Part shown: positions 13,002 to 62,239 of the stretch, in pieces | How positions within the stretch are numbered: the first letter of the stretch is position 1 | Layout of the letters: each line of letters opens with the position of its first letter | Assembly: GCF_026213295.1 (NCBI RefSeq) | Contig: NC_079415.1 | Coordinates: 24,191,847-24,255,846, forward strand | Length of the DNA stretch: 64,000 bases | Origin: Gadus chalcogrammus | Taxonomy: Eukaryota; Chordata; Actinopteri; Gadiformes; Gadidae | Reading direction: 5' to 3' | Notes under the pieces: model-generated | The model's input: the letters and a program-made list of their open reading frames with translations, nothing else | Databases searched by the model: none | What the model was told of the DNA's origin: nothing | Made by a program: the position numbers and the translations under genes

Positions 13002-13009
13002 GTCTCCAC

Positions 13010-27748: not shown

Positions 27749-27750
<2 letters not shown>

Positions 27751-27834: not shown

Positions 27835-27835
<1 letters not shown>

Positions 27836-30868: not shown

Positions 30869-31774
30869 AATAACACCCGTAGTTTTGCTGTGTAGAGGAA
30901 TGTAGAGCTGGGTGTCATCCGCGTAGCAATGGAAACTAATTCCGAAGCTGCGGATAACGTCGCCCAGGGGAAGCATGTAGATTGCAAAAAGTAATGGACC
31001 AAGGACCGACCCTTGTGGTACGCCAAAGCGTAATTTACAGTGCTTTGATTCTGAACCCTCATGAAGCACAAATTGGGTTCTATCTGTTAGGTACGATTCA
31101 AGCCAACCAAGAGCCGTACCCCCGAAACCAACATAGTGCTCAAGACGGTGAAGAAGAGTGCTGTGGTCGATCGTATCGAACGCAGCGCTCAGGTCCAGCA
31201 GCACAAGCATTGAGCTTGTATTTTTATCCAAAGCAAGAAGGATGTCATTTACAACTCTTGTAATAGCAGTTTCAGTTGAGTGGAAATTCCCGAACCCCGA
31301 CTGGAAAGGTTCAAAGAGATTATTCCTCGTCAGATAATCAACGATTTGCTTTGCTACAATCCTTTCCTGTACCTTGGACAGGAAGGGCAGATTCGATATA
31401 GGCCGATATTTCCTGACTAATTCAGGATCTAGGCCAGGCTTTTTGAGTAGCGGTTTTAACACTGCAGCCTTGAAATTGGAAGGAACAATTCCTGTTGAAA
31501 ACGAGAGATTAATAAGGGAGAGGATTGCAGGCCCCGCCGTGGGAAGAAGTTCCTCAAGAACCCTGGAAGGGAGAGGATCCAACATACAAGTTGTTGGCTT
31601 TGATGCCTTTATCACCCTTTCAAGTTCCACCAAAGGAATTGCCTTGAACTCCAAGAGAGTTGCGTCAGAGTTCCCCATCCTGCCCCACAGGGTGTGTAGG
31701 ACAAGCCGCCCGGCAAGCATCAATTTCCTCTCTAATTGATTGAATCTTATTCTCAAAGAAATCCATGAATTCAC
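30869..31774 (-). pseudogene. L2/CR1-type LINE reverse transcriptase, 3'-truncated
   Basis: The minus-strand frame from 31774 carries RT blocks in order: KYRPISNLPFLSKV, NLFEPFQSGF, LLDLSAAFDTIDHSTLLHRL (catalytic D), GVPQGSVLGPLLF and CYADDTQLY, the YADD catalytic box at about 30914-30925. The frame ends some 14 residues after YADD, where the LINE meets CACTA repeats, so thumb, C-terminus and 3' UTR are missing. It would have copied LINE RNA at a nicked target. L2/CR1 placement rests on overall motif style. Frameshifts join it to the endonuclease part. Confidence 0.85.
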
Positions 31775-37361: not shown

Positions 37362-39779
37362 CAGAGGTTCCCAACCTTTAGACTGCTGAGGCCCAAATTA
37401 AATTCTGAAAATCTTCCGCGGCCCACCCACAATTTTGCATATTCATAACTATGAGACGACAATGAGATTAAGCATTTCTTCATTTATTGAATGTAATTTT
37501 GAACAACGTTCTGTTTAAAATAAAAAAAACTGTTCAACATATTGGCATAACCTATAAATAAATTTAACTGTTCATTGAATTCATAAACTTTTAATTCATA
37601 AATATTCGTTCATACCTGACCTACGCTAATGAGAAGGTTGATGCTGCATAGCCAATGTCAAAGACTTGATGTTTGGCTGAATGGATGTCAGCTTTAAACG
37701 GAGATCTGGCTCAACATCCAGTTTATTCCTATACTTTGTCTTTAATACCACGAGCACGGAAAAACCAGTTTCACACAAATATGTGGTGCTAAAAGGCATC
37801 AGAAACATCAATGCCTTGTTTGCCAAATCAGTGTATTCTGTGTGTGTGTGCATCCAGAAATGTGTTAACTCCTTCTGTGTGAAGACATGTTTCAAAGCAG
37901 AGTCACAAGATAACTCCACAAGGCTGTCTTGCTCTTTGGAGCTCAGACCTGCGAGGACATCCTCATTACGGGAGGCAAACGGATTCTGAATCCAGCGGTG
38001 CTGTTCGCTGAGCACCGGGAAGTACACCCGGAGTTGTGTCCGCAGGGTCTGCAGGTGTTCTGTGACGGCATCTGCCACAGAATCCGGGATCTGCCTTTCC
38101 TCTTGAATGAGAAGTTCTGATAGATTGTCGAAGGACTCATAGTAGTTCTGTCGGGCCCGTCTCTCCCATAGCTCGAGCTTCCGAATTGTGGCCTCTATCT
38201 TACTGTGGACATGGAATGTGGTCACAGCTTTTCCCTGCAAGGATAGATTGAGTCCATTTAGGTAGCCGAATATGTCAGCCAAATAGGTCAACTTACAGAT
38301 CCACTCGAAGTCACCAAATCGGTCTGACAAGTCAAACCGAGAGTCGAGGAAAAATGTTCTGAGTTCGTTCCGAAGTTCAACGAGTCGAGTGAGCACCTTG
38401 CCACGCGAAAGCCACCGGACTTCGGTGTGCAGGAGAAGCTGTTGGTGCTCGCTCCCCATCTCTGAACATAATATGGAGAACAAGCGTGACTGTAGTGGAC
38501 GACTTTTAACAAAATTCACCGCTCTCACCGCTTCTTCTAAAACGGTCTTTAACTCTGCAGACATAGTCTTTGTAGCCAGTGCCTCTCTGTGTAGGCAGCA
38601 GTGGACAGCTGTCATCAGCGGAGCTACGGCTTTGACCCTTTTTGCGACTCCATTGAGTCTCCCCACCATAGCTTGTGCTCCGTCAGTGCTGAGCCCAACA
38701 CACTTCGTCCAGTCGATATCATTGGAAACCACGAATGCATTCAGAGATTCAAAAATGGTTTCCGCGGTAGCACGTGACGGTAAAGGTTTGCAAAACAAAA
38801 CATCTTCATGTATCTCCCCTTCAAATTCATATCTGACGAAACAAAGTAAATGCGCAAAGTTAACAATGTCTGTCGACTCATCAATTTGGAGAGCATAAAA
38901 GCGGCTTGCTCTTACTCTGCTTATTAGCTGTTTTAACACATCTGTAGCCATGTCGTCAATGCGTCTCTTTACTGTGTTGTCTGACAAAGAAATCAAGTTC
39001 AGTTTTTTGGCAGCTTTCTCACCGATCATCACTTCCACCATCTCTTTGGCAGCGGGAAGAAAAAAATCCTCACTGATTGTGTGTGGCTTTCCTGTTCTTG
39101 CTATTCGCTGCGCCACCCGATAGGACACCTCCACAGCCTTGGCATTGTCGCTAGCACTACTTAGACATGTGGATTCAATTGTTCTCTTACGCATCCGATA
39201 TTCTGCCAGCTTATTTTCAAAAAATTCCCGTGGCTTGGAAGAGTACTGTCCATGTTTCGTGTCCTTGCATGGTTTTAGAGCCTCGTTTGATAAAACCTCA
39301 GAGCACAACACACAGACAGGCAGGGGATCGTGTTCAGGCCCCACACTTGTAAATCCCAGTGACAGATATTCTTCTGAATACTTCCTACGAGGTCTTTTCT
39401 TCGCTGGCTCACTATGGTCTTCTGATTCGAGGTTGTTAACTACTTTACTTCTTATTTTTCCACCTAACAACCACTGCTCCATGATTAGCACGTAACCGCT
39501 CTGGAGGTGTGCAGCACGTAACGAGAATAGAACATTACCCATAATCAAACGATCCGACCAACCCCGCCAAATCCAGCAGAACAACCGATTTCGTAGCCTA
39601 GAAACTATTTGAACACATTTCGTTAATCTAATCATCTACTTAAACCATTCAATCCTTTTTAGTAATCCGTCATTATATTTTTGTTTGTTTGTTATAAATT
39701 CAGATTTTTCTTTTTTAATCGAAAGGTCTCCCACGGCCCACCTGCAATACCTCGGCGGCCCACAGGTTGGGAACCACTG
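37362..39779 (-). mobile_element. Autonomous-type hAT element (ZBED5-like)
   Basis: Inverted ends CAGAGGTTCCCAACC (left) and GGTTGGGAACCACTG (right) are flanked by the perfect 8-bp duplication CAGTAGAT (37354-37361 and 39780-39787). Length 2418 bp; it contains one long transposase ORF and has landed in the last exon of the accessory gene. Confidence 0.93.
37626..39482 (-). CDS. hAT transposase, ZBED5/SCAND3-like
   Basis: An uninterrupted ORF. The ATG at 39482 (MEQWLLGGKIRSK) is preferred over the upstream one at 39635 because homologues I recall begin near here; this gives 618 residues. A basic KKRPRRK (28-34) precedes a BED-like finger with CVLC (57-60) and one His (H76); the usual preceding His appears lost in a short deletion. 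Catalytic DDE residues seem present: D201 in LQIDESTD, D267 in GLSTDGAQAM and E571 in CETGFS inside the C-terminal hAT dimerisation region. CCLH at 295-298 is also typical. It cuts and pastes elements bearing the CAGAGGTTCCC ends. Intact core but a doubtful DNA-binding finger. Confidence 0.88.
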   Translation of the reverse strand: MEQWLLGGKIRSKVVNNLESEDHSEPAKKRPRRKYSEEYLSLGFTSVGPEHDPLPVCVLCSEVLSNEALKPCKDTKHGQYSSKPREFFENKLAEYRMRKRTIESTCLSSASDNAKAVEVSYRVAQRIARTGKPHTISEDFFLPAAKEMVEVMIGEKAAKKLNLISLSDNTVKRRIDDMATDVLKQLISRVRASRFYALQIDESTDIVNFAHLLCFVRYEFEGEIHEDVLFCKPLPSRATAETIFESLNAFVVSNDIDWTKCVGLSTDGAQAMVGRLNGVAKRVKAVAPLMTAVHCCLHREALATKTMSAELKTVLEEAVRAVNFVKSRPLQSRLFSILCSEMGSEHQQLLLHTEVRWLSRGKVLTRLVELRNELRTFFLDSRFDLSDRFGDFEWICKLTYLADIFGYLNGLNLSLQGKAVTTFHVHSKIEATIRKLELWERRARQNYYESFDNLSELLIQEERQIPDSVADAVTEHLQTLRTQLRVYFPVLSEQHRWIQNPFASRNEDVLAGLSSKEQDSLVELSCDSALKHVFTQKELTHFWMHTHTEYTDLANKALMFLMPFSTTYLCETGFSVLVVLKTKYRNKLDVEPDLRLKLTSIQPNIKSLTLAMQHQPSH

Positions 39780-42205: not shown

Positions 42206-43652
42206 TTAAAGCAAGAAAGTTCTGGGAGTGGCTAACAGGCGCCCCTGGATGAAGTATGACACAAGTGGCATGTAGTCATTGAGATCCTCTGGTTTCACCA
42301 AGAGACACTCAGCAGGGCTTTTTTTCACGAGATGGTAACTCCTCAAATGCTCCACGTAGAAGGTCGTAAAACGCTCAATGAAGAAACAAACATGACCAGC
42401 CAGCACAATGCATATTTCCAAAATCCTTCCGAAGTCTGGTAGTCCACTTGTACTTCCAACAGAGAGTATCATTCCCTTTGAATACTGCGTTCCATTTAAG
42501 AAGATACTAGGGGTCAGTCCAACTGTGTCAACATCACTGAATCTATTCAAGATTGCTAGTCTAACACCACCATCTAAGACTTCCAGGCAGATATCAGTCA
42601 CTTTTGCCGTCTCAGTCTCAGGCTTGAAAATGCTAGCCATTTCAAGATAATATGCAAGCATAAGTTGGTGTCTTGAGGCCATGGTAAGCAGAATGTTTTT
42701 AAAGTTATTGGCATCACGCACTACCTTTTTAAAGAAAGAATGTTTAGCCTCAAACCTGATTGTCCAACACTCTATTAAGGGTCCAAACCTTTGAATTAGG
42801 CATGGATAATGCTCAATGAAGTGATGTTTGGGGCGTAACTTGTAATCTGGGAAAACTGTCAGTAGTAACTGTCTATGATCTGATATTTTGGACTGCAAAT
42901 AACAAAGTGAGTCTAAAGTGTAAGATGGAGTTGCCAAGAGCTCAACCAAGTCTTTCAGTTCAAGGACTATTTCCCATGTTTGATCTCCTTCTGGAACACG
43001 GTGGCCGATGATAAGGGGAAGGAAACGCACAAGACTCAAATTTTCGTGGCCATTACCACCTACAGTTCCAGTCTTTCGAAAAGTTGAAGGAATTTTCTCG
43101 GGACAGTTTGTCTTATCAGAGAATTTAAAAGGAAAGCTCTGTATTTCACTATTGAGCTCTTCTAATTTGAAATACTTCTTTGAAATCAAATCTGCAAGGC
43201 ACAGACTTAGTTCTACAGGTACAATCCCTTCCAACACATCATGCAAGAAATCAGGTGGAAAGCCTGTGCATGTGTGAAATCCTGTCAGGCTGTTGAGAGG
43301 GCAGTCTCGTTTCACACCATCAACAGATGCAACGTCACTCTGCTTCAACACATTTACAGCTTCATCAAATGACTCTGGTGACCTTAAAACAAAGTTCCCA
43401 GTTCTAACATCACACGTCTGTATGTCTTTACGACTAACTAGACAAAACCTACAAAACTTCTCAACATTGAACGACTCTTGGAAACCACCTAAGGAATGTG
43501 CAGCTAAGTTGTCAGCAGCAACAAACAAGATGGTGCCTTTAACATTACACCCTAGTTTGTCTACAAACACACCAACTGTTTCAAGACATTTAATATCGTC
43601 AATCAGTGGCTTCAAAACACTATCATAACCATAAATCCTGACATGCTCAACC
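42206..43652 (-). pseudogene. CMC/EnSpm (CACTA) transposase, 5'-truncated (copy 2)
   Basis: About 482 codons stay open to a stop at 42206. The family blocks appear in order: GYDSVLKPLIDDIKCLE; an acidic residue in VAADNLAAHSLGGF (about 43513) followed by CRFC; PPDFLHDVLEGIVPVELSL (about 43225-43255); PKHHFIEHYPCLIQRFGP; and RFEAKHSFFKK (E at about 42754). This matches the TNP2-like plan of plant and animal CACTA transposases, with D..D..E candidates all present. The 5' half (zinc fingers, MYVPI block) is missing because palindrome 2 starts at 43653; the open frame merely runs on into the palindrome. Gene order here is transposase then accessory gene, opposite to copy 1. Confidence 0.82.
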
Positions 43653-43825
43653 TTCAACCCGGTATCACGCAATTGCGTGCTCCTGCGCACGAACGTTAAT
43701 CTATCGAAGCGTGTTCCCGAGCACGATAGTCCGACTTTTTGCGTGTTACACAAAACGAAATGTAAACCAATGCATTCTGAATGGGAGTGTTCTAAGACAA
43801 TTAACGTGCTCCACAAAACGGTACG

Positions 43826-45150: not shown

Positions 45151-45774
45151 TTGTGTCTGATCTTTAGTTTTATAGTTATTAGGATTTGATCGGCTTGCTC
45201 GCATGTTTCAACGACGTCAGGTTGCTTTCGCTAAACTAGCAGCTCACGTGCTTCCTGCGTTTGTGTTATTAAACTGTTACTTTATGTAACTTTTAATGAT
45301 ATCATCTTGTTAGAAACACGTATATCTGAGAGCCAACCCAGTCGCCAAAAGCATACGTTGACAGTGTACTTTTCGTGAACACTGGATTACGTCGCATTTC
45401 AACATAAAATAGCGTGTTATACACACACACACGCGCACGCACAGACACACACACACAAGCACACACAAGCACACACACGCACGCACAGACACACAGACAC
45501 ACACACACGCACACGGTGCATTTCGCTGCTAAAACAACAACAAAAAAATATTCCCTCAAATATTATTACTTTCAAAACGTTGGGCAAAATGGCCAATAAT
45601 ATCATTTTTTATTTGGGATGCTTCTAGGATATTTTGGGTGGATTTTGAACGGTATGTGGGGGGCACGTTTTTTGCAGGACCTGGCAACCCTGCGCTGTTG
45701 CCCGAGATCTGGATCCACCCCGGCGTGGTGCTGTCTCCTTTTGACCTTTTGACCCCAGACTTCTGGGGGAATAG

Positions 45775-46410
45775 CTGAATCAATTCATTAGTCAATCAGA
45801 AGCATGTAAATATCGTCCCGGTGGCGTAAGAGGACGAACAAGGTGTCCTTCAACATCTACGCTTCCAGGAGATTGCAACGGTGCCACACATGAGCATATT
45901 CGAACATGTTTAATGGTAGTAATTAGCTGTCAAAATTTGAGGCCTTAATCAATACTGAGCAGCTATTGATTTGCTTCCCGATAAAGATTTGTCACAAATG
46001 ACATGTTATTTAGCATCTACACGTTGAGCTGAGTCCAATGACACCAAGAACGACACTCTAGCTAATGGTAACATGTGTTTTACATGGTACACCTAGGTCT
46101 AGGACATGATCTCGGTGTAGCAAGAGGCCGAGCTTGATCTCATTGGACTCAGCTTAACGTGTAGATGCTAATTAACATGTAATTTGTCAAAAATCTCCAT
46201 CGGGAAGCAAATCTATAGCTGGTCATTATTGATAAAGGCCTCCAAAATCGACAGCTAATTACTACCCCGAAACATATTCAAATATGATCATGTGTGGCAC
46301 TGTTGCAATCGTCTCGAAACGTAGATGTCAAAGGACACCTTGTTTGCTCTGTTGCACCACCGGGAAGATATTTTCATACTTCTAATGGATTGATTCATAT
46401 TTTAAGGTTC
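45775..46410. repeat. 630-bp hairpin inside left arm (copy 2 of 3)
   Basis: Same foldback as 35445-36075, centred near 46088. The third copy is at about 47975-48600 in the other arm, so each arm of the large palindrome contains a smaller palindrome. Confidence 0.88.
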
Positions 46411-47084
46411 TCGGAGTGAGACTTTAAGTGGCTGCAGCAGAAGTGTTGAGACGAAAGATTATATCAAGAGATTTATAGAATATTCCCATTCACATTATGA
46501 TTCTTCGTCGTAACATCCGACCAAACATCCTTTACATTCACAGAGCGAAGATTATGAAAGTCCAGGCTCAGCAAGTGCTCCATCTCGTTGCACCTGCACC
46601 CAGCGGCTCGCTTGCAAGATTTTGGCCTGAAGTTCTTCCCAGACCAACACCCTAGCCATCCAACATGCATATCTGAGAATCAGGCCTCTCTTTAATAATG
46701 ACAAAAAGTTATGAGAGAAACACACATTAACTTTTTGTTATCTCATAAGCGGCGTGGTGCCGGCTCCTTTTGACCTTTTGACCCCCGACTTCAAAAACGT
46801 GGCCACAGGCCAGCTGTGTCTACACACCTTTAGCCACAAATGTACACCTCCATCCCACAAAAAATGGGGACTAGAAACTAACCTCTGTCTTATGTACATT
46901 TACTGTACTGTTGGAGGTCACGCCCCTTTGCCGACCTTTTCGAGATAGCTAGGGATGCTAAAATGTTTACACACATTTCCCGGGGCCCCGTGTACGACAT
47001 ATCCGAGATTTGGAGTTCTAGCCCTTAGAGAAAAAAAGTTTTCCCAAATGGAGTGTCATTTGGACAAAGCCCCTCAGAAGTGTA

Positions 47085-47307: not shown

Positions 47308-50300
47308 CTGTCCAAATGAAACTCCATTTGGGAAAACTTTTTTTCTCTAAGGGCTAGAACTCCAAATCTCGGATATGTCGTACACGGGGCCCTGGGAAAT
47401 GTGTGTAAACATTTTAGCATCCCTAGCTATCTCGAAAAGGTCGGCAAAGGGGCGTGACCTCCAACAGTACAGTAAATATACATAAGACAGAGGTTAGTTT
47501 CTAGTCCCCATTTTTTGTGGGATGGAGGTGTACATTTGTGGCTAAAGGTGTGTAGACACAGCTGGCCTGTGGCCACGTTTTTGAAGTCGGGGGTCAAAAG
47601 GTCAAAAGGAGCCGGCACCACGCCGCTTATGAGATAACAAAAAGTTAATGTGTGTTTCTCTCATAACTTTTTGTCATTAGTAAAGAGAGGCCTGATTCTC
47701 AGATATGCATGTTGGATGGCTAGGGTGTAGGTCTGGGAAGAACTTCAGGCCAAAATCTTGCAAGCGAGCCGCTGGGTGCAGGTGCAATGAGATGGAGCAC
47801 TTGCTGAGCCTGGACTTTCATAATCTTCGCTCTGTGAATGTAAAGGATGTTTGGTCGGATGTTACGACGAAGAATCATAATGTGAATGGGAATATTCTAT
47901 AAATCTCTTGATATCATCTTTCGTCTCAACACTTCTGCTGCAGCCACTTAAAGTCTCACTCCGAGAACCTTAAAATATGAATCAATCCATTAGAAGTATG
48001 AAAATATCTTCCCGGTGGTGCAACAGAGCAAACAAGGTGTCCTTTGACATCTACGTTTCGAGACGATTGCAACAGTGCCACACATGATCATATTTGAATA
48101 TGTTTCGGGGTAGTAATTAGCTGTCGATTTTGGAGGCCTTTATCAATAATGACCAGCTATAGATTTGCTTCCCGATGGAGATTTTTGACAAATTACATGT
48201 TAATTAGCATCTACACGTTAAGCTGAGTCCAATGAGATCAAGCTCGGCCTCTTGCTACACCGAGATCATGTCCTAGACCTAGGTGTACCATGTAAAATAC
48301 ATGTTACCATTAGCTAGAGTGTCGTTCTTGGTGTCATTGGACTCAGCTCAACGTGTAGATGCTAAATAACATGTCATTTGTGACAAATCTTTATCGGGAA
48401 GCAAATCAATAGCTGCTCAGTATTGATTAAGGCCTCCAATTTCGACAGCTAATTACTACCATTAAACATGTTCGAATATGCTCATGTGTGGCACCGTTGC
48501 AATCTCCTGGAAGCGTAGATGTTGAAGGACACCTGGTTCGTCCTCTTACGCCACCGGGAAGATATTTACATGCTTCTGATTGACTAATGAATTGATTCAG
48601 CTATTCCCCCAGAAGTCTGGGGTCAAAAGGTTAAAAGGAGACGGCACCACGCCGGGGTGGATCCAGATCTCGGGCAACAGCGCAGGGTTGCCAGGTCCTG
48701 CAAAAAACGTGCCCCCCACATACCGTTCAAAATCCACCCAAAATGTCCTAGAAGCATCCCAAATAAAAAATGATATTATTGGCCATTTTGGCCAACGTTT
48801 TGAAAGTAATAATATTTGAGGGAATATTTTTTTGTTGTTGTTTTAGCAGCGAAATGCACCGTGTGCGTGTGTGTGTGTGTGTGTGTGTCTGTGTCTGTGT
48901 GTCTGTGCGTGCGTGTGTGTGCTTGTGTGTGTGTGTCTGTGCGTGTGCGTGTGTGTGTGTGTATAACACGCTATTTTATGTTGAAATGCGACGTAATCCA
49001 GTGTTCACGAAAAGTACACTGTCAACGTATGCTTTTGGCGACTGGGTTGGCTCTCAGATATACGTGTTTCTAACAAGATGATATCATTAAAAGTTACATT
49101 AAGTAACAGTTTAATAACACAAACGCAGGAAGCACGTGAGCTGCTAGTTTAGCGAAAGCAACCTGACGTCGTTGAAACATGCGAGCGAGCCGATCAAATC
49201 CTAATAACTATAAAACTAAAGATCAGACACAATCACTGACTGAAGTTTATGCAAGTAAAAAGTATATTTCTCGCTAGAAATGTTATTAGAAACACGTTTA
49301 ACGGTGAATCGGTCCTAAAATATTGCATTTCCCATTCAGATAATAAAGATTAATAAAGATCATACACATTCACTGACTGAAGATTATGTAAGGAAAATGT
49401 ACATTTCTCGCTAGAAAAGTCATTAGAAACGCGTTTAATGGTGTATCTGTCCTAAAATATTGCATTTCCCATTCAGATAATAAAGATTAATAAAGATCAT
49501 ACACATTCACTGACTGAAGATTATGTAAGGAAAATTTAAATTTCTCGCTAGAAATGTCATTAGAAACGCGTTTAATGGTGTATCTGTCCTAAAATATTGC
49601 ATTTCCCATTCAGATAATAAAGATTAATATAAGCTACGCCGTGTTCCGGAGCCGCGGGGGATTCTGGGAATTGGGGTTCTCAGTTGACAAATGGGGCTTT
49701 TGTTAACTTGTTTTGTTGTTAGGATTAAGTGGGGTTAATGGGTTCGGGATGTTATGTGGTTGTGTGTTGTTCTATTAACATTGTTCGTGTGTTCATTATT
49801 GTCGACACCGTCACCGAGAGTGACGTGACCATCGTTTCGTGCAGCTGTTCCGTGTTGAAGTCTCGTTCAATAAAAACCAACTCTCATTGTCGAACGTTCA
49901 ATAAAAACCAACTCTCGTTGTCGAGCATGCCCCCCCCCTACAAACGTGTCTCCCCCCCCCTCAACAAACGTTTCCCCCCCCCCCCCCCCCCCCCTTCAAC
50001 TAACGTGTCCCCCCCCGCCGATTTCCCATGCTGATATCCCCGAAGATTCTCGGGCATCTTCGACAATTTGGCTATAGATTGTCTCATTACACGCTAAATA
50101 ATATAATTAAAGCCTTGTATAATTATCACCTACAGTATTTCATTATGTGTTGTTCTTTCAATTGTGTTGTTGTTTACTGCATGTCATTTACGTTCTTGGT
50201 GGTTCAGGAATCGCGGTCCCTTTAAGGATTACGTGCGTCTCATGACGTCACAGACCATGCTGGATTTGTTTACCTTCAGCACGCTTTGATTTCCGGTTTT

Positions 50301-50684: not shown

Positions 50685-51236
50685 CACTCAGCTCTGTCAT
50701 GCGATTTAACATGCGATTTGACATGCGCTTTTGCACCACCGTACATATAGGTACAGCGTTAATTTCAGAGGGAGTCCGGTTAACACTCAGCTCTGAAACA
50801 ATTGGTGCAATAGATCCTGGTTCAGCTAACCCATCTGCTGTTCTAGACTCTGCAACGTAGACTATCATGTTGCTAGCAGGTTTGCTAAACTCCTGCAGCC
50901 CAGCGTGCTGTGAGTGGATGAGTTACGCCTGGCTAAGACATCTATCTATGTTTTTTGACATAATTGAGGCGCCTAACCCAGTAGGGTGTAGGCCGTCTCT
51001 CATGAGCACACCAGGGCGACCCCACAGGGAGGGCCAGTTATCTATGAAACCAAAGCCCTGCTCTGAACTATATCGTGCCAGCCAGTGATTTAGAGACAAT
51101 AATCTACTATAGCCCTCATCATTACCCTTATCGGGCAGAGGGCCAGAGAGAATTAATCGATGCCGACACATCTTTCTGGCGAAGTCACAAAGCCTAGCTA
51201 TGTTGCTTTTTGTGACCTCAGTTTGTCTTGTCCTAG
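50685..51236 (-). pseudogene. LINE ORF1 fragment with SGNH-esterase motifs
   Basis: Reading leftwards from 51236 on the minus strand gives RQTEVTKSNIARLCDFARKM, HRLILSGPLPDK, LLSLNHWLARY, GFIDNW and RDGLHPTGLGASIMSKNI. This is the second half of the SGNH-hydrolase-like ORF1 of fish L2/CR1 LINEs; DGLH is the catalytic Asp-His block. The matching first half with HVGTND (block III) lies at 59409-59450, beyond the Gypsy insertion. Towards 50760 the sequence carries SELSVNRTPSE, also found at the start of the 33-kb LINE endonuclease. It is a dead fragment. The left edge meets palindrome 2. Confidence 0.75.
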
Positions 51237-51974
51237 TGTAACGGAACAAATAAAATGAGTATGTGTATAGTTAAATCCTGTATCATTGGGTCAAGACTTT
51301 TATTTTGATATGTTGTTAATGTTGTATTCCGGATATCCTGCAGCAGAAAAGACGGTAACTGCTGCAGGTAGGTTGAGCATAAAACGTGTCCGCATGAAAC
51401 TTTTATTAAAGTAATTCATTGATTCAGTAATTCATCAATATCATTGTCACTTATCTGTAGACGGTTGTTTAATACACTCTTCATATATTTGGCATTGTAT
51501 TGTTTCTTTTATTTGAGTTTTGATTTTCGTTTGCATTTGTAATATTGTATGTATTTTGTCTAGGCGGACCAGGAAATGCTCTAAACCTGTCCTTTATGTT
51601 GCTGACCCATTGTGCAGGTAACCGATAGGTTGTTTTAGTTAAATGTATGTTTATAATCCCACTTGTGGCGTTGCTAGCATTCAATGCTAGCATTCAAAAT
51701 CTAGCCGGTCCCGCCATTTTTACATGCAATACCGCTGGTCGCCACATGAGGGGAGGGATCACCTGTTTATGCGCGCTGTTTAGCGCAACTGTTTTAAATA
51801 TATATAATAAATTATAGAGCAGAAAAGACGGTAACTGCTGCAGGCGGACCAGGAAATGCTCTAAACCTGTCCTTTATGTTGCTGACCCATTGTGCAGGCA
51901 ATAAAACCGCTGCATCCAATGCTGAGCGTCCGAGTCCAATGCTTGAAGGGAAACAAAACACAACGCAGGTTACA
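51237..51974 (+). repeat. Gypsy 5' LTR
   Basis: TG...CA ends. A TATA-like tract (about 51797-51811) and AATAAA (51900-51905) suggest U3 extending to about 51825 and R around 51825-51925. The LTR carries an 80-bp sequence twice, once interrupted and once joined: segments 51342-51367 and 51564-51617 recur fused at 51818-51897. Confidence 0.95.
51368..51563 (+). other. Intron-like segment inside the LTR
   Basis: Begins CAG|GTAGGT and ends TTTTGTCTAG|G after a T-rich stretch. It separates two segments that are directly joined 450 bp downstream. A second GT..AG block (51618-51817) follows. Splicing is inferred; a 3-bp AGG microhomology at the joint allows a plain deletion instead. The 3' LTR has the same arrangement. 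Confidence 0.5.
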
Positions 51975-51975
51975 G

Positions 51976-51993
51976 TGGTGCCGTGATCCCGGA
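51976..51993 (+). promoter_or_regulatory. Primer binding site
   Basis: TGGTGCCGTGA begins two bases after the LTR. It is complementary to the 3' end of tRNA-His as I remember it (11 bases exact); later bases match only in part. Confidence 0.65.
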
Positions 51994-52217
51994 TTCAACT
52001 GATTGGTCGCTGACCAACAACCCTTACCGGAGGGCCTGTTACCATTCCCACACTGGAGATCAACTGAGAACACTTGGGTATTGTGTTATATTTGGGGAAC
52101 TGTAGAATATATGAAATGTTATGAGTGGATATTAATGTGACTGTTTTAGTGCACATCGACATTTTGTATTTTTTTTTATTACTATTTTTTTTTCTTCTCT
52201 CCGTCTTTTCCATTGTC

Positions 52218-53591
52218 ATGGCTGGCTCACGGGTTACTGGAGCTCAAGGCTTTCTGACTCCTGTTAGTGTGGGTCGGGGTAGAGGTGTGTTGGGGTTGCC
52301 TATCCCTTTCCCTCAGCTTAGTGCGTCTGTGGGTACTACTGTAGGGATGGCAGCGAGGTCTCCACGTCCTGTTGTTAGTGACACACCACACGCTGCTCAC
52401 ACAGAACAAAATAGTTTCCCTGCGCAACAGGCCCCCTGCACTTCCACTCCTTTAACTACAGAGGACCTTGTAGGCCAGATGAGTGGCATCGTGCAACACA
52501 TAGGTCAACAACTAGCAGACAGCATTCTCACACACTTGGGTAGGTCTAGTCCTGCGGCGGCTTTGTCTACTCCAAGTGTACACAGTGGTAGCTACGCTCC
52601 AGCTCAGGACTCTGTGTCATCATCTCAGCTACATGTAATGAGTCAGAGGAAGGTGAGAGATCCCCCTACTTTCAGAGGTGAGAATTCAGACTCAGTTACT
52701 CTTGAAGAGTGGATTGAGCTAATGCAAACTTTCATAAAGAAGGGAGGTCTATCTATTGGAGAGCAGGGGGAAGAGATTCTCATCCATTTAAGGGGCAAGG
52801 CCAAGGATGTAGTCAAAGTGGGCATTAAATCAAGTGGCGTTGACATCAGACATAGTCCAGCTTCTATCTATAGCCTTTTAAGGAAGCATTTCAGTTGCAA
52901 GCAGTTTTCACCACTGCCTCTGCAAGACTTCTACACAACCTTCCCTGAACCACGGGAAGATCCCTTTGACTACTGGCTTCGCCTTAACTGTGCTGCTGAT
53001 ATTGCTGCCGAGTGTCTCCTGGAACAGGGTAAGCAGCAAGACAGCTTGTCCATTGAGGTCACACGTATGTTCATTAGGAACTGCCCAGATTCCGGTCTAT
53101 TGCTCACTTTTCGTTCTAAGACCATCGACAAGTGGTCGGCTGCAGAAGTGCAAGAAGTTTTGGATGAGTACCACTCAGAGAAGGTCATCAAAGCAGCAGG
53201 GGTAGGGAAAGATGGGGCTGTTGGGGAGAAGAACGTGGCTGTGAACAGGATGGAGGTGGAGAGTAGCCTAGCTCCCCTGTGTAGCGCTCAGCCAACACCA
53301 CAGTCCACATCAGCTGATCACTCTGCTCTGGAGAGGATGATTGGTATGATGGAGAAGGTTCTTATGAATACTGCTCAGTCCAGATCAGCGGATAGAAGGA
53401 CAAGTGGTCTACCTCGTATTCAAGGTCTTAAAGACACACCGTGTTTAGTTTGCAAAGACCCCTCTCATTCTGCCTTGTCACACTGTAAGGATAACAGACT
53501 GTGTTTCCAGTGTTTTTCTCCTGACCATGCAAGGGACAGATGTCCACGTAGGGGACAGAGTGCAGTACCCGGTGGCCAGGCGTCAAACTAA
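52218..53591 (+). CDS. gag: Gypsy Gag polyprotein
   Basis: The ATG at 52218 (MAGSRVTGAQGF, context GTCATGG) is preferred over one 31 codons upstream that would add a hydrophobic leader of untranslated-region character. This gives 457 residues ending in TAA at 53589-53591. The middle shows a capsid-like region (VRDPPTFRGENSDSVTLEEW, then FDYWLRLNCAADIA). Near the C-terminus are two cysteine/histidine clusters: CLVCKDPSHSALSHC and a zinc knuckle CFQCFSPDHARDRC (CX2CX4HX4C). Gag packages the element RNA into particles. Pol lies in the -1 frame, open from 53552, overlapping the gag end by 40 bases. Confidence 0.9.
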   Translation: MAGSRVTGAQGFLTPVSVGRGRGVLGLPIPFPQLSASVGTTVGMAARSPRPVVSDTPHAAHTEQNSFPAQQAPCTSTPLTTEDLVGQMSGIVQHIGQQLADSILTHLGRSSPAAALSTPSVHSGSYAPAQDSVSSSQLHVMSQRKVRDPPTFRGENSDSVTLEEWIELMQTFIKKGGLSIGEQGEEILIHLRGKAKDVVKVGIKSSGVDIRHSPASIYSLLRKHFSCKQFSPLPLQDFYTTFPEPREDPFDYWLRLNCAADIAAECLLEQGKQQDSLSIEVTRMFIRNCPDSGLLLTFRSKTIDKWSAAEVQEVLDEYHSEKVIKAAGVGKDGAVGEKNVAVNRMEVESSLAPLCSAQPTPQSTSADHSALERMIGMMEKVLMNTAQSRSADRRTSGLPRIQGLKDTPCLVCKDPSHSALSHCKDNRLCFQCFSPDHARDRCPRRGQSAVPGGQASN

Positions 53592-56500
53592 CAGATCTGC
53601 GTGTGGGGGAGGACCACGTAGATTGTGAAAGTGTGCTTCCCAATTCTAGCTTTGAGGCTTTTTCTGACTATGAATCTCTTAGTCAGTTGTACAGTAGTGA
53701 TTGTTCGTCAGAGAAGACAGTTATTTTTCAGAATTTGCAGACAGTTCCCAGGTCTGATAGTTTATTTTACACATCAGTTTCAATAGTGAATGGACTCTCT
53801 TTCAAAGCGCTTATTGATAGTGGATCCATGGCGTGTACTCTTAGTGAGTCTGCTGAAGCCATGTTGTTGAAATACATTCCAGGCATTTCAAAGCAGTCAG
53901 CTCAAGATATTGTGATTGTTGGCTGTGGAGGCCATCGTGTCACTCCAACAGCAATCTATGACCTCCAAGTCAGTGTGTACGGTTATTCAATGACTGTTCC
54001 CACTTTAGTTGTCCCAGGTCAATCTGAGGAGATGATTCTGGGCAGTAACGTCATCAAAAGGCTTTTGACGTGTCTGAGAGAGGCAGGTGGCAATTGGAAG
54101 CTCACGTCCATGCCCAGCAATAACCAGAGTGATGAATGCTCTCAGTTTTTGTCCCTTTTCTCCAACACTCAGAGGTGGAGAGGTGAGTCTGTGCCAGACA
54201 GAGTGGGCACTGTAAAGCTCATGAGAAGTGTGACATTAGAGCCACAAACAGAGCACCTGGTTTGGGGTAAGCTACCCGTGTCTTCAGCCTTGTCTGTGGG
54301 TAGCACAGTCATCGTTGAGCCGACCAAGTCAAGATCAAGACCTAAGCAGATAATGGTTGGCAGAGTGATCACACCGCTTTGGGGTGATGGCTCCATTCCG
54401 ATGAAAGTTATAAACCCAACCAATCATAGAATAGTCCTGAGGAGAAATGCTAAGATAGCCGACGTGTCACCTTGCATTGCTGTGGAAGACCTGCCACAGC
54501 CAGAACAGATCAAGTCAAATGTGCAGTGTACGGACAGCAGCCCCTCAACTCCCTCAACTCCCAGGTCAGAGGAAGAGATGAAACGTGCCTTGTGCAGTTT
54601 GAACCTCCCTGACATCGATCTGGAGTCTTGTGAGGTGTCGGCACACTGGAAAGACAAGCTGCTCCAGACCATTGAGAGATATGAGTCAATATTCTCAAGA
54701 GACAAAATGGACTGTGGAGAAGCCAGTGACTTTGTCCATCGCATTCATCTGGCTGATGACCGACCCTTTCGTTTGCCTTACAGGCGTATACCACCAAGCC
54801 AGTATGCTAAACTAAGGACGACTCTGAACGACATGGAGGAGAAGGGAATCATTCGCAAGTCACACAGTGATTATGCATCTCCCCTCGTGCTTGTCTGGAA
54901 GAAGAATGGCGATTTAAGGATTTGTACAGATTTCAGGTGGTTGAATGCTCGGACGGTCAGAGACGCCTACCCGTTGCCTCACCAGTCTGATGTGTTGGCT
55001 GCACTGGGCGGGAACGTCTTCTTTTCCACAATGGATCTGACATCAGGCTATTACAATGTGCCTTTGCAGGAAGAGCATAAGAAATGTACAGCCTTTTCTT
55101 CTCCTTTCGGCCTGCACGAGTACAACAGACTGCCTCAGGGTCTCTCAAACAGTCCAGCCACATTCATGAGAATGATGATGTCAATCTTTGGCGATGAGAA
55201 CTTCAGCAGTGTCCTGTGCTATCTGGACGATCTCATGGTGTTTGCTCCTTCCGAGTCTGTGGCCCTTCAGCGTCTTGAAATGATCTTCTCCCGTCTGTCG
55301 AGTCACAATCTGAAGCTGGCCCCAAAGAAATGTTTCTTCTTAAGACGTTCTGTTAAATTCCTTGGCCACATAATCTGTGAGAAAGGCATTGAGACGGATC
55401 GAGACAAGGTCGAGGCCATCAGCAAAATCCAGAGAGTTGATCTGATGGAGGCTGACGGGCAGACACCATGTTCAAAGAAGATCAGATCGTTCCTTGGTAT
55501 GGTGATGTATTATCAACATTTTATTGAGGGATGTTCTGCGAAGGCCAAGCCACTCTTCAAGTTGACAGCAGGGTCCAGTAAGCAGACTCGTGGGAAGTTG
55601 GGGAGAAAGCCAAAAAAACGGCCGAGTGTCACTAAACTCGCCCCTACTGATTGGACACCTGCTTGTCAGCAGGCCTTTGAAGTCCTGAAGTCAGATCTGC
55701 TACAGAGTGTGACCTTAGCTCACCCAATGTTCGACCAGCCTTTCATTCTGGCTGTTGACGCGTCTTTTGACGGAGTTGGAGCAGTCCTCTCTCAAGTCCC
55801 TCCTGGTGAGGAGATAGCAAGACCGGTAGCCTTTGCCAGCAGAACGTTGTCTCGGTCACAGATGAACTACCCTGCTCATAGACTTGAATTCTTTGCACTG
55901 AAGTGGGCTGTTTGTGAAAAGTTCAGCCATTGGCTTAAGGGAAGACATTTCACAGCATGGACTGACAACAACCCTTTGACATACATTTTGACAAAGCCCA
56001 GACTGGATGCCTGTGAACAGCGATGGGTGGCTAAACTTGCATCATACAGCTTTGACATAAAGTATGTCCCAGGCCCTAGAAACATTGTGGCAGATGCTTT
56101 AAGCAGAGAACCCTTCGTCCAGTCTTGCGTAAGCCACCGCATTGTTACCGAGCCATACATGTCTCTCTTGAGAAATTTCAGTGGTGTTGTGGATGACACA
56201 GTCCAAAATGCCTTCAGGTACTCCAACAATCATCAGATGGTCCTGAGATCAGGCAAAAATCCACATAACACGTCCGCCGACGAAGCCTCAGACACTGGTT
56301 CGGTCGGAGCTCCAGATGTTTCAGCTGTTCTGGAAGCTCATTCCAGTGGTGGTCTGAGTGAAGTCCTGGGTGCGAGTCCGGCTGTTCCTCAACTGCAGCA
56401 GGTTGACTCCCCCATTCCTCACAGCAGTCTTGTGAACCAACAAGGGCAGGATAGTACGATCAGCCGAGTCCTCTACTATATCGAGAGACGGCGGAAGCCA

Positions 56501-58300
56501 TCGAAAAATGAGAGAACAGATGAGTCCTTCAGTGTGCGCCAGCTCCTGAAGTATTGGGACAGGCTCGTTATCCATGATGGCTTACTGTGCAAGGTGAGAA
56601 AAGATCAAGGCATGAACAGACGACTTTTTCTCTTTGTCGTGCCCAACTCTCTCAAAGCGCAAGTACTGAATGGAATTCATGATTCCGCTGGTCACCAAGG
56701 GAAGAGCCGAACGCTGTCTCTGGCTAGGCAGAGATTCTTTTGGGTTGGCATGAAAAGAGACGTTGATGATCATGTGAAAAACTGTCATCGCTGTGTTGTT
56801 GGAAAGACACCAGAGCCCGGTGCTTCTGCTCCACTTGAGAGCATCCGCACATCGGAGCCGATGGAACTGGTCTGCATTGACTTTTGGTCTGCAGAGGTCA
56901 ATGATGGGAAGTCCATGGATGTGCTTGTTGTGACTGACCATTTTTCCAAAATGGCTCATGCATTCCCATGCAAAAATCAGTCCGCTAAGCAAGTGGCTCG
57001 GAAGCTCTGGGATGATTTCTTTCTCGTATACGGTTTCCCTAGGAGGATTCATTCTGATCAGGGAGCGAACTTTGAAAGCAAGTTGATCAGGGAGCTGTTG
57101 ATTCTTTCGGGTGTCGAGAAGTCGCACACAACACCATACCACCCCATGGGCAATGGCGTGGTTGAAAGATTCAACAGGACCCTTGGGTCCATGATCAGAA
57201 CGTTGCCTCCTAAATCCAAAGCAAAGTGGCCCCAGATGTTACAGCTACTCACCTTCTGTTACAATTGCACAGAGCACGAGACAACAGGCTTTGCACCATT
57301 CCATCTGATGTTCGGTAGAGTCCCTCGTCTCCCAGTTGACGTCCTGTTTCAAACTGTGGTTTCTGACGATGTTGTGGTGGGTCACAATGAGTTTGTGTCA
57401 CACCTGAAGAAAGACCTGCGTGAAGCGGTGCAGATTGCACAAAGACACAGTCAGAAAGAACAGACTAGACACGCAAGGCTCTATAACAGGAAGGTCAAGG
57501 GGTCACCTCTAATCATTGGTGACAGAGTGCTCGTTGCGAACAGAGGTGAAAGAGGGAGAAGGAAGTTGACTGACAAATGGGAGTCAACAATGTACGAAAT
57601 TGTGGCTGCAAACCCTGACATCAATGTCTACAAGATCAAAGACGTTGCCTCTGATAAACTGAAGGTAGTCCACCGAAATCTACTGCTTCCTGTGAACTTC
57701 TTACCGATTGGTGATGGAGAAGACACCCACACCAGGGGTAGTGGTGAGGTGGTTCCTGAAGTCAGCCCTTCGGAAGAAGTAGATCACAGAGGCGAGGTGG
57801 TGCCTGAAGTCAATCCTGTAGTTGAGGTGGATGTCAGTGAGGGGATGGTTCCCAAAGTCAACCTCCCAGGTGAGATTGATGGCAGCGTTGACCGGACTGT
57901 ACACTGGGTGCTGTCCAGCCCTGATGATTCTGAGTTGGAGGATCGACAGACTAGCCTCTCTGAAGGACCTGATGTGTCTGATTGGGTGTCTGAGCCATTT
58001 CACTCAGCTAGTGTCATCGGCAGTGATCGGAGGTTGGAGGACAGTGATTTTCCCCCTATAATCAATGGTCGACACAGTGCTGAGCTCCACCCCGTGGTCA
58101 TTGCACATGAAGAGGTATCCACAGATGCACTTCCAGTATGCACTCAACCTCTGGGTGTTGAAGACACAGTAGCTCGAACCAGACGAGGCAGGGCTGTCAA
58201 CCCTCCAGAGAGGCTCATTTGCGAAATGAATGAACAAGTCCTTGACACTTCAGAGTCCACAGTGAACTCTTTCATTTATTTAGTTAAAAGTTTGTTTTGA
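53552..58300 (+). CDS. pol: Gypsy Pol polyprotein (PR-RT-RH-IN)
   Basis: Continuous frame of over 1565 codons. No ATG opens it, so expression by -1 frameshifting within 53552-53591 is likely. Counting residues from 53603: protease IDSGS (D72) with ILGSNV near 145; reverse transcriptase D478 and YLDD (540-543); RNase H D719, D788 in TDNN and D831 in VADALS; integrase zinc finger H1026, H1031, C1061, C1064; and catalytic D1093, D1152, E1188 (VCIDFW, HSDQG, VERFNR). An acidic C-terminal tail of about 200 residues has three imperfect repeats of the VVPEVNP type. All catalytic residues are present with no stop, so this copy could be autonomous. No chromodomain is obvious. Confidence 0.95.
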   Translation, partial: GTECSTRWPGVKLTDLRVGEDHVDCESVLPNSSFEAFSDYESLSQLYSSDCSSEKTVIFQNLQTVPRSDSLFYTSVSIVNGLSFKALIDSGSMACTLSESAEAMLLKYIPGISKQSAQDIVIVGCGGHRVTPTAIYDLQVSVYGYSMTVPTLVVPGQSEEMILGSNVIKRLLTCLREAGGNWKLTSMPSNNQSDECSQFLSLFSNTQRWRGESVPDRVGTVKLMRSVTLEPQTEHLVWGKLPVSSALSVGSTVIVEPTKSRSRPKQIMVGRVITPLWGDGSIPMKVINPTNHRIVLRRNAKIADVSPCIAVEDLPQPEQIKSNVQCTDSSPSTPSTPRSEEEMKRALCSLNLPDIDLESCEVSAHWKDKLLQTIERYESIFSRDKMDCGEASDFVHRIHLADDRPFRLPYRRIPPSQYAKLRTTLNDMEEKGIIRKSHSDYASPLVLVWKKNGDLRICTDFRWLNARTVRDAYPLPHQSDVLAALGGNVFFSTMDLTSGYYNVPLQEEHKKCTAFSSPFGLHEYNRLPQGLSNSPATFMRMMMSIFGDENFSSVLCYLDDLMVFAPSESVALQRLEMIFSRLSSHNLKLAPKKCFFLRRSVKFLGHIICEKGIETDRDKVEAISKIQRVDLMEADGQTPCSKKIRSFLGMVMYYQHFIEGCSAKAKPLFKLTAGSSKQTRGKLGRKPKKRPSVTKLAPTDWTPACQQAFEVLKSDLLQSVTLAHPMFDQPFILAVDASFDGVGAVLSQVPPGEEIARPVAFASRTLSRSQMNYPAHRLEFFALKWAVCEKFSHWLKGRHFTAWTDNNPLTYILTKPRLDACEQRWVAKLASYSFDIKYVPGPRNIVADALSREPFVQSCVSHRIVTEPYMSLLRNFSGVVDDTVQNAFRYSNNHQMVLRSGKNPHNTSADEASDTGSVGAPDVSAVLEAHSSGGLSEVLGASPAVPQLQQVDSPIPHSSLVNQQGQDSTISRVLYYIERRRKPSKNERTDESFSVRQLLKYWDRLVIHDGLLCKVRKDQGMNRRLFLFVVPNSLKAQVLNGIHDSAGHQGKSRTLSLARQRFFWVGMKRDVDDHVKNCHRCVVGKTPEPGASAPLESIRTSEPMELVCIDFWSAEVNDGKSMDVLVVTDHFSKMAHAFPCKNQSAKQVARKLWDDFFLVYGFPRRIHSDQGANFESKLIRELLILSGVEKSHTTPYHPMGNGVVERFNRTLGSMIRTLPPKSKAKWPQMLQLLTFCYNCTEHETTGFAPFHLMFGRVPRLPVDVLFQTVVSDDVVVGHNEFVSHLKKDLREAVQIAQRHSQKEQTRHARLYNRKVKGSPLIIGDRVLVANRGERGRRKLTDKWESTMYEIVAANPDINVYKIKDVASDKLKVVHRNLLLPVNFLPIGDGEDTHTRGSGEVVPEVSPSEEVDHRGEVVPEVNPVVEVDVSEGMVPKVNLPGEIDGSVDRTVHWVLSSPDDSELEDRQTSLSEGPDVSDWVSEPFHSASVIGSDRRLEDSDFPPIINGRHSAELHPVVIAHEEVSTDALPVCTQPLGVEDTVARTRRGRAVNPPERLICEMNEQVLDTSESTVNSFIYLVKSLF

Positions 58301-58668: not shown

Positions 58669-59404
58669 TGTAACGGAACAAATAAAATGAGTGTGTATAG
58701 TTAAATCCTGTATCATTGGGTCAAGACTTTTATTTTGATATGTTGTTAATGTTGTATTCCGGATATCCTGCAGCAGAAAAGACGGTAACTGCTGCAGGTA
58801 GGTTGAGCATAAAACGTGTCCGCATGAAACTTTTATTAAAGTAATTCATTGATTCAGTAATTCATCAATATCATTGTCACTTATCTGTAGACGGTTGTTT
58901 AATACACTCTTCATATATTTGGCATTGTATTGTTTCTTTTATTTGAGTTTTGATTTTCGTTTGCATTTGTAATATTGTATGTATTTTGTCTAGGCGGACC
59001 AGGAAATGCTCTAAACCTGTCCTTTATGTTGCTGACCCATTGTGCAGGTAACCGATAGGTTGTTTTAGTTAAATGTATGTTTATAATCCCACTTGTGGCG
59101 TTGCTAGCATTCAATGCTAGCATTCAAAATCTAGCCGGTCCCGCCATTTTTACATGCAATACCGCTGGTCGCCACATGAGGGGAGGGATCACCTGTTTAT
59201 GCGCGCTGTTTAGCGCAACTGTTTTCAATATATATAATAAATTATAGAGCAGAAAAGACGGTAACTGCTGCAGGCGGACCAGGAAATGCTCTAAACCTGT
59301 CCTTTATGTTGCTGACCCATTGTGCAGGCAATAAAACCGCTGCATCCAATGCTGAGCGTCCGAGTCCAATGCTTGAAGGGAAACAAAACACAACGCAGGT
59401 TACA
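58669..59404 (+). repeat. Gypsy 3' LTR
   Basis: Near-identical to 51237-51974, two bases shorter, with the same interrupted and joined 80-bp duplication (58772-58797, 58994-59047 and 59248-59327). Confidence 0.95.
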
Positions 59405-59408
59405 CTAG

Positions 59409-60693: not shown

Positions 60694-61210
60694 GCTTAAA
60701 GACTCAGAGCACAACTATCCAGTCCATCAATTGGAATTTCTGGCATTAAAATGGGCTGTCGTGGACAAGTTTCACGATTACTTGTATGGAGCTAAGTTTA
60801 CTGTAAGAACTGACAACAACCCATTAACATATGTGTTGACCTCTGCCAAACTCAGTGCAGTCGGACATCGTTGGCTCGCTGCCCTTGCCACCTACGAGTT
60901 CACCATCCAATATCGACCTGGGAGGCAAAATATCGATGCTGACTTGTTGTCTCGACAATACTCTCCAGAGGAGGCTAAAGAGTGGACGAGTGTCCCACCT
61001 GCTGGCATCAAAGCCCTCTGCAAGCGAGCCTGCATCAGTGGAGAGGCTGATGTGCCCGACAGATTGGTGGACCAGTTGGGAGCTCCTGCTGCAGCTGTAC
61101 CAGAAGCTTATGTGTTCCCAGTGAACCTTAGCATGAACGTGCTGGATCAGCTAAGTCCGAAAGATATCCAGGCATCACAAGACATGGACCCAACAATTGT
61201 GGGCCATTAA
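60694..61210 (+). pseudogene. Second Gypsy element: RNase H remnant
   Basis: Opens abruptly in the RNase H domain (YPVHQLEFLALKWAV), continues TDNNPLTYVLTSAKL and GRQNIDADLLSRQ, and stops at TAA 61208-61210. The 5' part (gag, PR, RT) is missing. It differs from the intact Gypsy pol in sequence and linker, so it is a separate, older family. Confidence 0.85.
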
Positions 61211-62239
61211 AGAAGGATCTGGAAAAGAATAAAGGGCTGACACGCTCAAAAAATGATTCACCTGAGACTGTGTTGCTCTTACGCGAAAGCCGAAAGTTGG
61301 AATTAAAGGATGGATTACTCTACAGAGTAAAAGAAAAAACATGCGGAAAACAGATCAAACAACTTGTCTTACCAGCCAGATACCGCCCAATGGTGTTAAG
61401 GTCTCTACATGATGTTGAATCAAATAACAAGTAATGGCCCTTTAGATTTAGTCTGCATTGACTTTTTGTAGATAGAGCCTGACTCTAGAGGTGTTGCTAA
61501 TGTGTTAGTAGTGACAGAACATTATACACGTTACGCACCAGCATTTGCTACAAAAGATCAAAAGGCTATCACCGTTGCAAGAGTATTGTGGGAGAAGTAT
61601 TTTGTGCACTACGGCCTACCTGCACGGATACACTCGGATCAAGGACGAGATTTTGAAAGTCGCCTGATCAAAGAACTCTTGTCCATGCTTGGGGTTCGGA
61701 AGTCAAGAACATCCCCCTATCACCCACAAGGGGACGCACAACCAGAAAGGTTCAATAGAACACTTTTAGCAATGCTTGGTACCCTGGACACTGTCAAGAA
61801 ACAAAGTTGGAGTCAACATATCACCCACCTGGTACATGCATACAATTGCACCAAGAATGATTCCACAGGATACTACCCTTATCATCTCATGTTTGGAAGG
61901 GAGGCAAGGTTACCCATTGACATCTGTTTTGGGATCTCGCCAAATGGTGAAAGTGAAACCTCTTACCAACAGTACGTCGCCAGGATGAGGAAAGAGTTAC
62001 AAAAAGCCTACCAACTGGCATCTGACGCTGCTACAAAGAGTCATCTGAAAAACAAAGCTCGTTATGACCACCGTGTGAGAGATTCACCTTTGGAGAAAGG
62101 TGACAGAATTCTCATTTAGAATTTGGGTCTAAAAGGCAAGCATAAACTCCAAGATCGATGGAAATCAACACCATATGTTGTTGTGGAGAAGTTGCCTAAT
62201 CTGCCTGTTTACAAGGTCAAACCAGAGCATGGTACAGGT
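61211..62239 (+). pseudogene. Second Gypsy element: integrase remnant
   Basis: A frame running to about 61425 (LRESRKLELKDGLLYRVKE) is cut before the HHCC finger, which is deleted. The core follows: VCIDFL then an in-frame TAG near 61471, VTEHYTRYAPAF, HSDQGRDFESRLI and QPERFNRTLLAM, so the D, D, E residues remain. Another TAG at 62117-62119 precedes KDRW/VYKVKPEHGT-type C-terminal sequence. Stops and the deletion make it non-functional. It continues at 63466 beyond the hAT insertion. Confidence 0.85.

What the first reader, a model, noticed from the sequence alone, without database searches (positions are those of the whole stretch)
51342..51897. Gypsy LTR contains an interrupted and a precisely joined copy of the same sequence, with GT-AG ends
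Segments 51342-51367 and 51564-51617 are separated by a 196-bp block with a strong donor (CAG|GTAGGT) and a T-rich acceptor (TTGTCTAG). At 51818-51897 the same two segments sit fused. A second GT..AG block (51618-51817) lies between. One reading is that a spliced LTR-derived RNA was reverse-transcribed and captured in the LTR by template switching. That would be a record of splicing inside an LTR, with the TATA-like tract just upstream of the joined copy.
Basis: partly seen in the sequence, partly recalled or inferred. Interest (0 to 1): 0.8.

Follow-up and report, generated by a model that had tools for sequence, protein, structure and literature searches.

The report
LTR repeat rewritten from spliced RNA
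A fish jumping gene carries in each of its end repeats one copy of an 80-base sequence split by an apparent intron and one copy already joined, and comparison with its relatives suggests that the joined copy is repeatedly rewritten from spliced RNA, which would let this end repeat keep an intron through copying.

Summary
The 196-bp block (I1) looks like a real intron: 0 of 200,000 random deletions had both splice sites as strong, and its two ends are its best conserved 10-mers across 13 loci. The host genome shows an old, shared layout, not a one-off capture: 22 of 35 LTR sequences compared hold both copies, and subfamily-defining changes appear alike in both copies of the same LTR (six of six between window and L021). 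Best explanation: RNA starting near 51342 is spliced inside the LTR; its strong-stop cDNA pairs with the joined copy at the RNA's 3' end and overwrites it. No RNA was available, so start site, splicing and frequency are inferred. A TATA box before the joined copy, one element with joined-copy-only changes, and L027 argue against rewriting in every cycle.

The parts
51237..51974 (+). 5' LTR of the Gypsy element (738 bp, TGTAAC...GTTACA)
   Evidence: 99.6% identical to 58669-59404; CTAG at 51233-51236 and 59405-59408
51237..51341 (+). A: left end of the LTR; inferred to hold the upstream start site at or near its right end
   Evidence: position only; no promoter test
51342..51367 (+). E1, upstream copy (inferred first exon)
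   Evidence: identical to 51818-51843
51368..51563 (+). I1, inferred intron of 196 nt
51564..51617 (+). E2, upstream copy (inferred second exon); its end is both acceptor-like and followed by a donor
   Evidence: identical to 51844-51897; acceptor score top 1.9%
51618..51817 (+). X: promoter-like block with TATATATAA at 51799-51807; poor intron by itself
51618..51897 (+). I2, inferred intron (X plus joined copy); splicing it joins E2 to U5
   Evidence: donor plus acceptor 16.1 bits
51818..51897 (+). Joined copy E1E2, inferred to act as R and to be rewritten from spliced RNA
51898..51974 (+). End of R (AATAAA at 51900-51905) and U5
   Evidence: boundary inferred
51976..51993 (+). Primer binding site, resembles the 3' end of tRNA-His (recalled, not tested)
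52218..53591 (+). gag-like open frame from its first ATG
   Evidence: no Pfam match
53603..58300 (+). pol open frame: protease, RT, RNase H, integrase
58669..59404 (+). 3' LTR with the same layout

Best explanation
The LTR holds a split exon pair (E1, I1, E2), a promoter-like block X and a joined copy E1E2 followed by U5. RNA that starts at or near E1 in the 5' LTR is spliced twice inside the LTR: I1 (51368-51563), and I2 from the end of E2 to the end of the joined copy (51618-51897). Its leader is then E1E2-U5. Minus-strand strong-stop cDNA of this leader cannot pair in one stretch with the interrupted copy but pairs perfectly with the joined copy near the 3' end of the RNA; synthesis then runs on through X, E2, I1, E1 and A. 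The joined copy thus serves as R and is overwritten from the spliced upstream copy, while the introns survive because they lie in the part copied from the unspliced 3' end. Shown: the layout in 22 LTR sequences, conserved splice ends, joint evolution of the two copies. Inferred: the upstream start site, splicing of both introns in the RNA that is copied, the transfer step and how often it happens.
For: Splice sites of I1: 0 of 200,000 random deletions and 0 of 11,800 deletions with at least 3 nt of microhomology were as strong. Both ends of I1 are its best conserved 10-mers in 13 loci. The donor after E2 (CAG|GTAAC) and the acceptor at the end of the joined copy recur where they can be read. 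22 of 35 LTR sequences compared hold both copies, intron upstream only. Window and L021 differ at the same 6 of 81 positions with the same states in both copies; L014 has a private change in both copies. Parsimony 29 steps for joint against 35 for independent evolution, 7 columns to 1; 0 of 2 x 3000 simulations of independent copies gave 7 such columns. In the window-L021 comparison the 80 bp change as fast as their flanks (5/80 against 7/105, 9/169, 16/194, 5/75). In L023 the joined copy is E1 directly on U5, as exon skipping would give.
Against: No RNA evidence. A TATA box lies in X just before the joined copy, and X-like sequence occurs elsewhere in the genome without E1E2, so a start inside the joined copy, which needs no splicing, is likely to exist too. 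L010 and L048, two LTRs taken as one element, share two joined-copy-only changes. In L027 the joined copy reads GCTTATAACC as the upstream copy of the old locus L036 does, while its upstream copy reads GCTTAAAACC as in L021: possibly an old state that was not rewritten. L021 and L030 now have TG instead of AG at the I1 acceptor; L021 nevertheless has perfectly matching copies, so this must be a later change if the model holds. L023 and the short LTRs can also be deletions between repeats. In L011 and L014-L017 the joined copy shows only 0-1 changes in 80, somewhat fewer than the flanks.
Confidence: 0.72

Rival explanations
1. Start at the TATA box in X: the joined copy is the ordinary R, transcribed as such, and the interrupted copy is a passive passenger in U3. 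The match between the copies is kept by homologous switching of reverse transcriptase or by DNA gene conversion between the repeats, without splicing.
For: TATA box 51799-51807; X-like sequence without E1E2 elsewhere; the repeats do recombine: L024 lacks exactly one E2-to-E2 unit that its presumed partner L042 has; joined-copy-only changes in L010/L048.
Against: Conversion would have to act on E1 (26 nt) and E2 (54 nt) separately and never carry I1 into the joined copy or out of the upstream one: 0 of 22 paired sequences show that. It leaves the strong, conserved splice sites unexplained.
Confidence: 0.17
2. Plain deletion: the joined copy arose from a duplicate of E1-I1-E2 by a 196-bp microhomology deletion (AGG at both ends), not by splicing.
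For: 3-nt AGG microhomology at the ends of I1.
Against: 0 of 11,800 such deletions in the window had splice sites as strong; 150 were GT-AG at all. Does not explain joint evolution.
Confidence: 0.03
3. Intron gain: the joined form is older and I1 was inserted into the upstream copy at the base of the family, for example by reverse splicing.
For: LTRs of the form A-E1E2-U5 exist: L034 and the older L045.
Against: L034 shares E2 states with intron-bearing relatives, and deletion between the E1 repeats, or transfer of the spliced leader to the upstream E1, gives the same form. It concerns only the first origin and would not replace the rewriting.
Confidence: 0.06

Closest known systems
Artificial intron test in a yeast Ty element and later intron reporters (PMC12786077, passages)
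   Same: An intron is removed by splicing and the spliced form enters the new DNA copy
   Different: Artificial and lost for good; here both forms are kept side by side
Caulimovirus DNA lacking exactly an intron (PMC4498817, passages)
   Same: Reverse-transcribed spliced RNA
   Different: Deleted genomes beside the normal one; no stored joined copy used as R
Foamy virus with splice donor in the LTR R region (PMC3185757, passage)
   Same: Splice donor inside the LTR
   Different: Splicing reaches beyond the LTR; R is not split by an intron
Plant LTR elements Ogre and EVADE with introns (PMC12786077, passages)
   Same: Functional introns in LTR elements
   Different: Introns give subgenomic RNAs and are not described as lying in the LTR in the passages seen
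Penelope-like elements that keep introns (recalled; no text read)
   Same: Retroelement copies that carry introns
   Different: Not LTR elements; no joined partner copy known to me

Membership tests
Gypsy (Ty3-type) LTR retrotransposon | Two near-identical LTRs with TG..CA ends and target-site duplication | tested here: met
Gypsy (Ty3-type) LTR retrotransposon | pol order protease, RT, RNase H, integrase | tested here: met
Gypsy (Ty3-type) LTR retrotransposon | tRNA primer binding site next to the 5' LTR | tested here: inconclusive
   tRNA-His-like by recall; ARAGORN found no tRNA in the window to compare with
GT-AG spliceosomal intron (I1) | Strong donor and acceptor, conserved among relatives | tested here: met
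   acceptor lost in L021 and L030
GT-AG spliceosomal intron (I1) | Removed from RNA | not testable with these tools
   no RNA data; only the joined copy in DNA
GT-AG spliceosomal intron (block 51618-51817) | Usable acceptor at 51817 | tested here: not met
   -3.85 bits, top 72% of AG sites
Processed retrocopy (joined copy) | Exons joined exactly, intron absent | tested here: met
   contiguous in all 22 paired sequences apart from small private indels
Processed retrocopy (joined copy) | Sequence follows its source copy | tested here: met
   exceptions L010/L048 and L027
R region of an LTR | Starts at the transcription start site and recurs at the RNA 3' end | not tested
   no RNA; TATA and AATAAA placed on either side

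The most novel reading that the evidence does not exclude
A split-R LTR element: in ordinary replication the genomic RNA's leader is spliced inside the LTR, and in most cycles R is made afresh from that spliced leader, so that the LTR keeps two introns which reverse transcription would otherwise erase. RNA from the upstream start (after splicing) and from the TATA start (unspliced) would carry the same leader.
Probability: 0.45. Interest if true: 0.85.

Novelty: new variant of a known kind. Interest (0 to 1): 0.72.

Why it matters
Introns are expected to be lost from anything that replicates through spliced RNA. This LTR suggests a way to keep them: hold the joined product as a second copy and use it as the strand-transfer repeat. 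It would be a natural record, left in DNA and repeated through the family's history, of splicing in the RNA that an LTR element reverse-transcribes, so that splicing, promoter use and strand transfer can be followed by comparing sequences. It also warns that placing R by the TATA box can mislead, and gives a test case for joint evolution of repeats driven by reverse transcription.

Tried and rejected
Second GT..AG block 51618-51817 as an intron: acceptor too poor. A, I1 and X as diverged copies of each other: no similarity above shuffles; X against U5 was the one pair above 499 of 500 shuffles and was not followed. Known RNA family in 51200-52150: none up to E = 1. Relatives in viral contigs, prokaryote genomes and plasmids: none. 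Short forms as splice products: L034 and L045 (A-E1E2-U5), L031 and L024 (A-E1-I1-E2-U5) fit splicing but equally deletion between repeats; since L024 and its presumed partner L042 differ, deletion is the safer reading there. A second LTR for L023: none found in the 8.7 kb searched, so exon skipping could not be tested there. Loci sharing only X (16 fetched, L049-L064): in the exact-repeat scan I recognised no interrupted-plus-joined pair; they look like another repeat family. Dropped before the paired count: L013, L032, L035 and L037 (fragments, not entered), L045-L047 (not entered), L001-L008 (same places as others); of the 35 sequences entered, 13 lack one of the two copies (L012, L022-L026, L028-L031, L033, L034, L036); upstream E1 of L019 and L027 is absent and was left out.

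Full report
What is there. The finding lies in the 5' LTR of a young Gypsy-type element: LTRs 51237-51974 and 58669-59404, TGTAAC...GTTACA ends, CTAG on both sides, one substitution and one 2-bp indel between them; a gag-like frame 52218-53591 and an open pol frame 53603-58300 with protease, RT, RNase H and integrase domains. The closest database pol proteins are from unnamed contigs (best 83%), and the named ones among the best are from fishes. The window's assembly has 630 Mb. Four other LTRs in it (L039, L040, L041, L043) are identical over all 738 bp, so the family was active recently.

The observation. I name the parts A (51237-51341), E1 (51342-51367), I1 (51368-51563), E2 (51564-51617), X (51618-51817), joined copy (51818-51897) and U5 (51898-51974, including the end of R). 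E1+E2 equals the joined copy in 80 of 80 letters, and the 3' LTR repeats all of it. I1 has a donor in the top 0.27% and an acceptor in the top 4.6% of the window's GT and AG sites, a T-rich end, and its last AG before the acceptor lies 46 nt upstream. A random deletion readable as GT..AG with both sites this strong occurred in 0 of 200,000 trials, and in 0 of 11,800 deletions with 3 nt or more of microhomology, although 150 of these were GT-AG. The weight matrices were recalled and rounded, so the scores are approximate.

The second block. 51618-51817 starts with a fair donor but ends in an AT-rich stretch (acceptor -3.85 bits, top 72%). The end of E2 itself, CTGACCCATTGTGCAG, is a strong acceptor (top 1.9%), and in the joined copy it is followed by U5. 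The pair 51618/51897 scores 16.1 bits. Splicing I1 and this longer I2 out of an RNA that starts at E1 gives E1-E2-U5: letter for letter the joined copy and what follows it.

Relatives. The genome search with 51342-51897 gave 42 matches (a lower bound by the tool's own words). One search added three older places (L045-L047), and one search places that share only X. I fetched 57 stretches. Of 35 LTR sequences entered in the comparison (33 loci and the two LTRs of the window), 22 hold both an upstream and a joined copy; in these 22 the I1 sequence stands before the upstream E2 and is absent from the joined copy. L019 and L027 have lost the upstream E1 or all but its end. Not in the count: L023, whose joined copy is E1 directly on U5, and the old copy L046 (65% to L036 over the matched part), in which I read A, the start of E1, the end of I1, the end of E2, X, a joined copy and U5. 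Other forms are A-E1E2-U5 (L034, L045) and A-E1-I1-E2-U5 (L031, L024); several loci are cut short by other sequence.

Conservation. In an alignment of 13 LTRs down to about 74% identity, the first 10 bases of I1 have a mean majority fraction of 0.992 and the 10-mer starting at 51554, at its other end, 0.985; these are among the best 10-mers in I1, against a median of 0.915, and bases 11-60 average 0.718. Exceptions: the acceptor AG reads TG in L021 and L030; L028 has an altered E1 end, where the automatic score picked the wrong place.

The two copies evolve together. If the copies had been inherited separately since before the subfamilies split, upstream copies should resemble upstream copies. 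Instead, window and L021 differ at 6 of 81 positions upstream (E1 13, 15, 17; E2 18, 19 and an inserted T) and at the same 6 with the same states in the joined copy, while inside each of the two loci the copies are identical. L014 has a private change at E1 25 in both copies. In 13 of 22 paired sequences the two copies are identical; the other nine differ at 1-5 counted positions, and L009 also by a 4-nt insertion. Most of these differences are seen in one locus only. The others are a CpG site shared by L019 and L027, two joined-copy-only changes shared by L010 and L048, and L027, whose joined copy has GCTTATAACC like the upstream copy of the old L036 while its upstream copy has GCTTAAAACC like L021; the last may be an old state that was not rewritten. 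Between window and L021 the 80 bp are not specially constrained: 5/80, against 7/105, 9/169, 16/194 and 5/75 for A, I1, X and U5; in the nearer group L011 and L014-L017 they show 0-1 changes. On a lineage tree that I assumed from overall identity (9 loci, 18 sequences), joint evolution needs 29 steps and independent evolution 35; 7 columns favour the first and 1 the second. In two sets of 3000 simulations of independent copies, none had 7 such columns.

Mechanism. A spliced RNA is the simplest carrier of the upstream states without the intron. If RNA starts at or near E1, its spliced leader E1E2-U5 is copied first, as strong-stop cDNA, and the only uninterrupted partner at the 3' end of the RNA is the joined copy. 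Transfer there overwrites the joined copy and regenerates the whole LTR, introns included. This gives the joined copy a role (R), explains the double signals at the end of E2 (acceptor, and donor after it in the upstream copy), and sets the direction of copying. The first letters of E1 would escape rewriting when transfer happens before the RNA end is reached, which would fit L010 and L048 (changes at E1 7 and 10). This paragraph is inference.

Limits. No RNA was available. X contains a TATA box, and X-like sequence occurs elsewhere without E1E2, so a promoter in X is likely too, and then only part of the RNA would be of the spliced kind. Conversion between the repeats is not excluded, though it would have to respect the exon borders each time. 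L023 and the short LTRs have deletion explanations. The first origin of the intron is not resolved. All comparisons come from one genome.

Known work. Passages seen: the artificial intron test in a yeast Ty element and introns in plant LTR elements (PMC12786077); caulimovirus DNA lacking exactly an intron (PMC4498817); the foamy virus splice donor in R (PMC3185757); the definition and length range of R (PMC12789967). Phrase searches for introns in LTRs found no like case: 5 papers, judged from the listing; one of them, PMC5542766, seen as passages, concerns a vector called LTR1; 0 papers. Broader searches were seen as listings only. The library lacks most subscription journals, so I say only that I did not find it there.

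Verdict. A real and unusual LTR layout: very probably spliced inside the LTR, with a joined copy that is recurrently rewritten from spliced RNA. New variant of a known kind.

Noticed in passing
9769-14501 and 25821-30547: Long inverted arms, reported 100% complementary (2798 and 2014 nt stretches), on either side of satellite-like arrays with 168-170 nt spacing; real palindrome or assembly effect not tested.
   Followed up: no
45421-47066 and 47309-48954: Second inverted pair, 1646 nt, 98% complementary, 242 nt apart.
   Followed up: no
30860-31774, minus strand: Open frame with a reverse transcriptase domain (RVT_1, E 8e-29), LINE-like by its look.
   Followed up: partly
37626-39635 and 42206-43816, minus strand: Long open frames (669 and 536 aa) without a Pfam match at E 0.001.
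   Followed up: partly
60731-62119: Pieces of a second Gypsy-like pol (RNase H and integrase matches) just downstream of the element.
   Followed up: partly
L024 and L042 (contig C19): Two LTRs about 7 kb apart, presumed one element, differ by exactly one E2-to-E2 unit (458 against 738 bp), showing that the repeats recombine.
   Followed up: partly
L047 and L049-L064: X-like sequence continues into other repeated DNA without E1E2, so X or its relative belongs to a further repeat family.
   Followed up: partly
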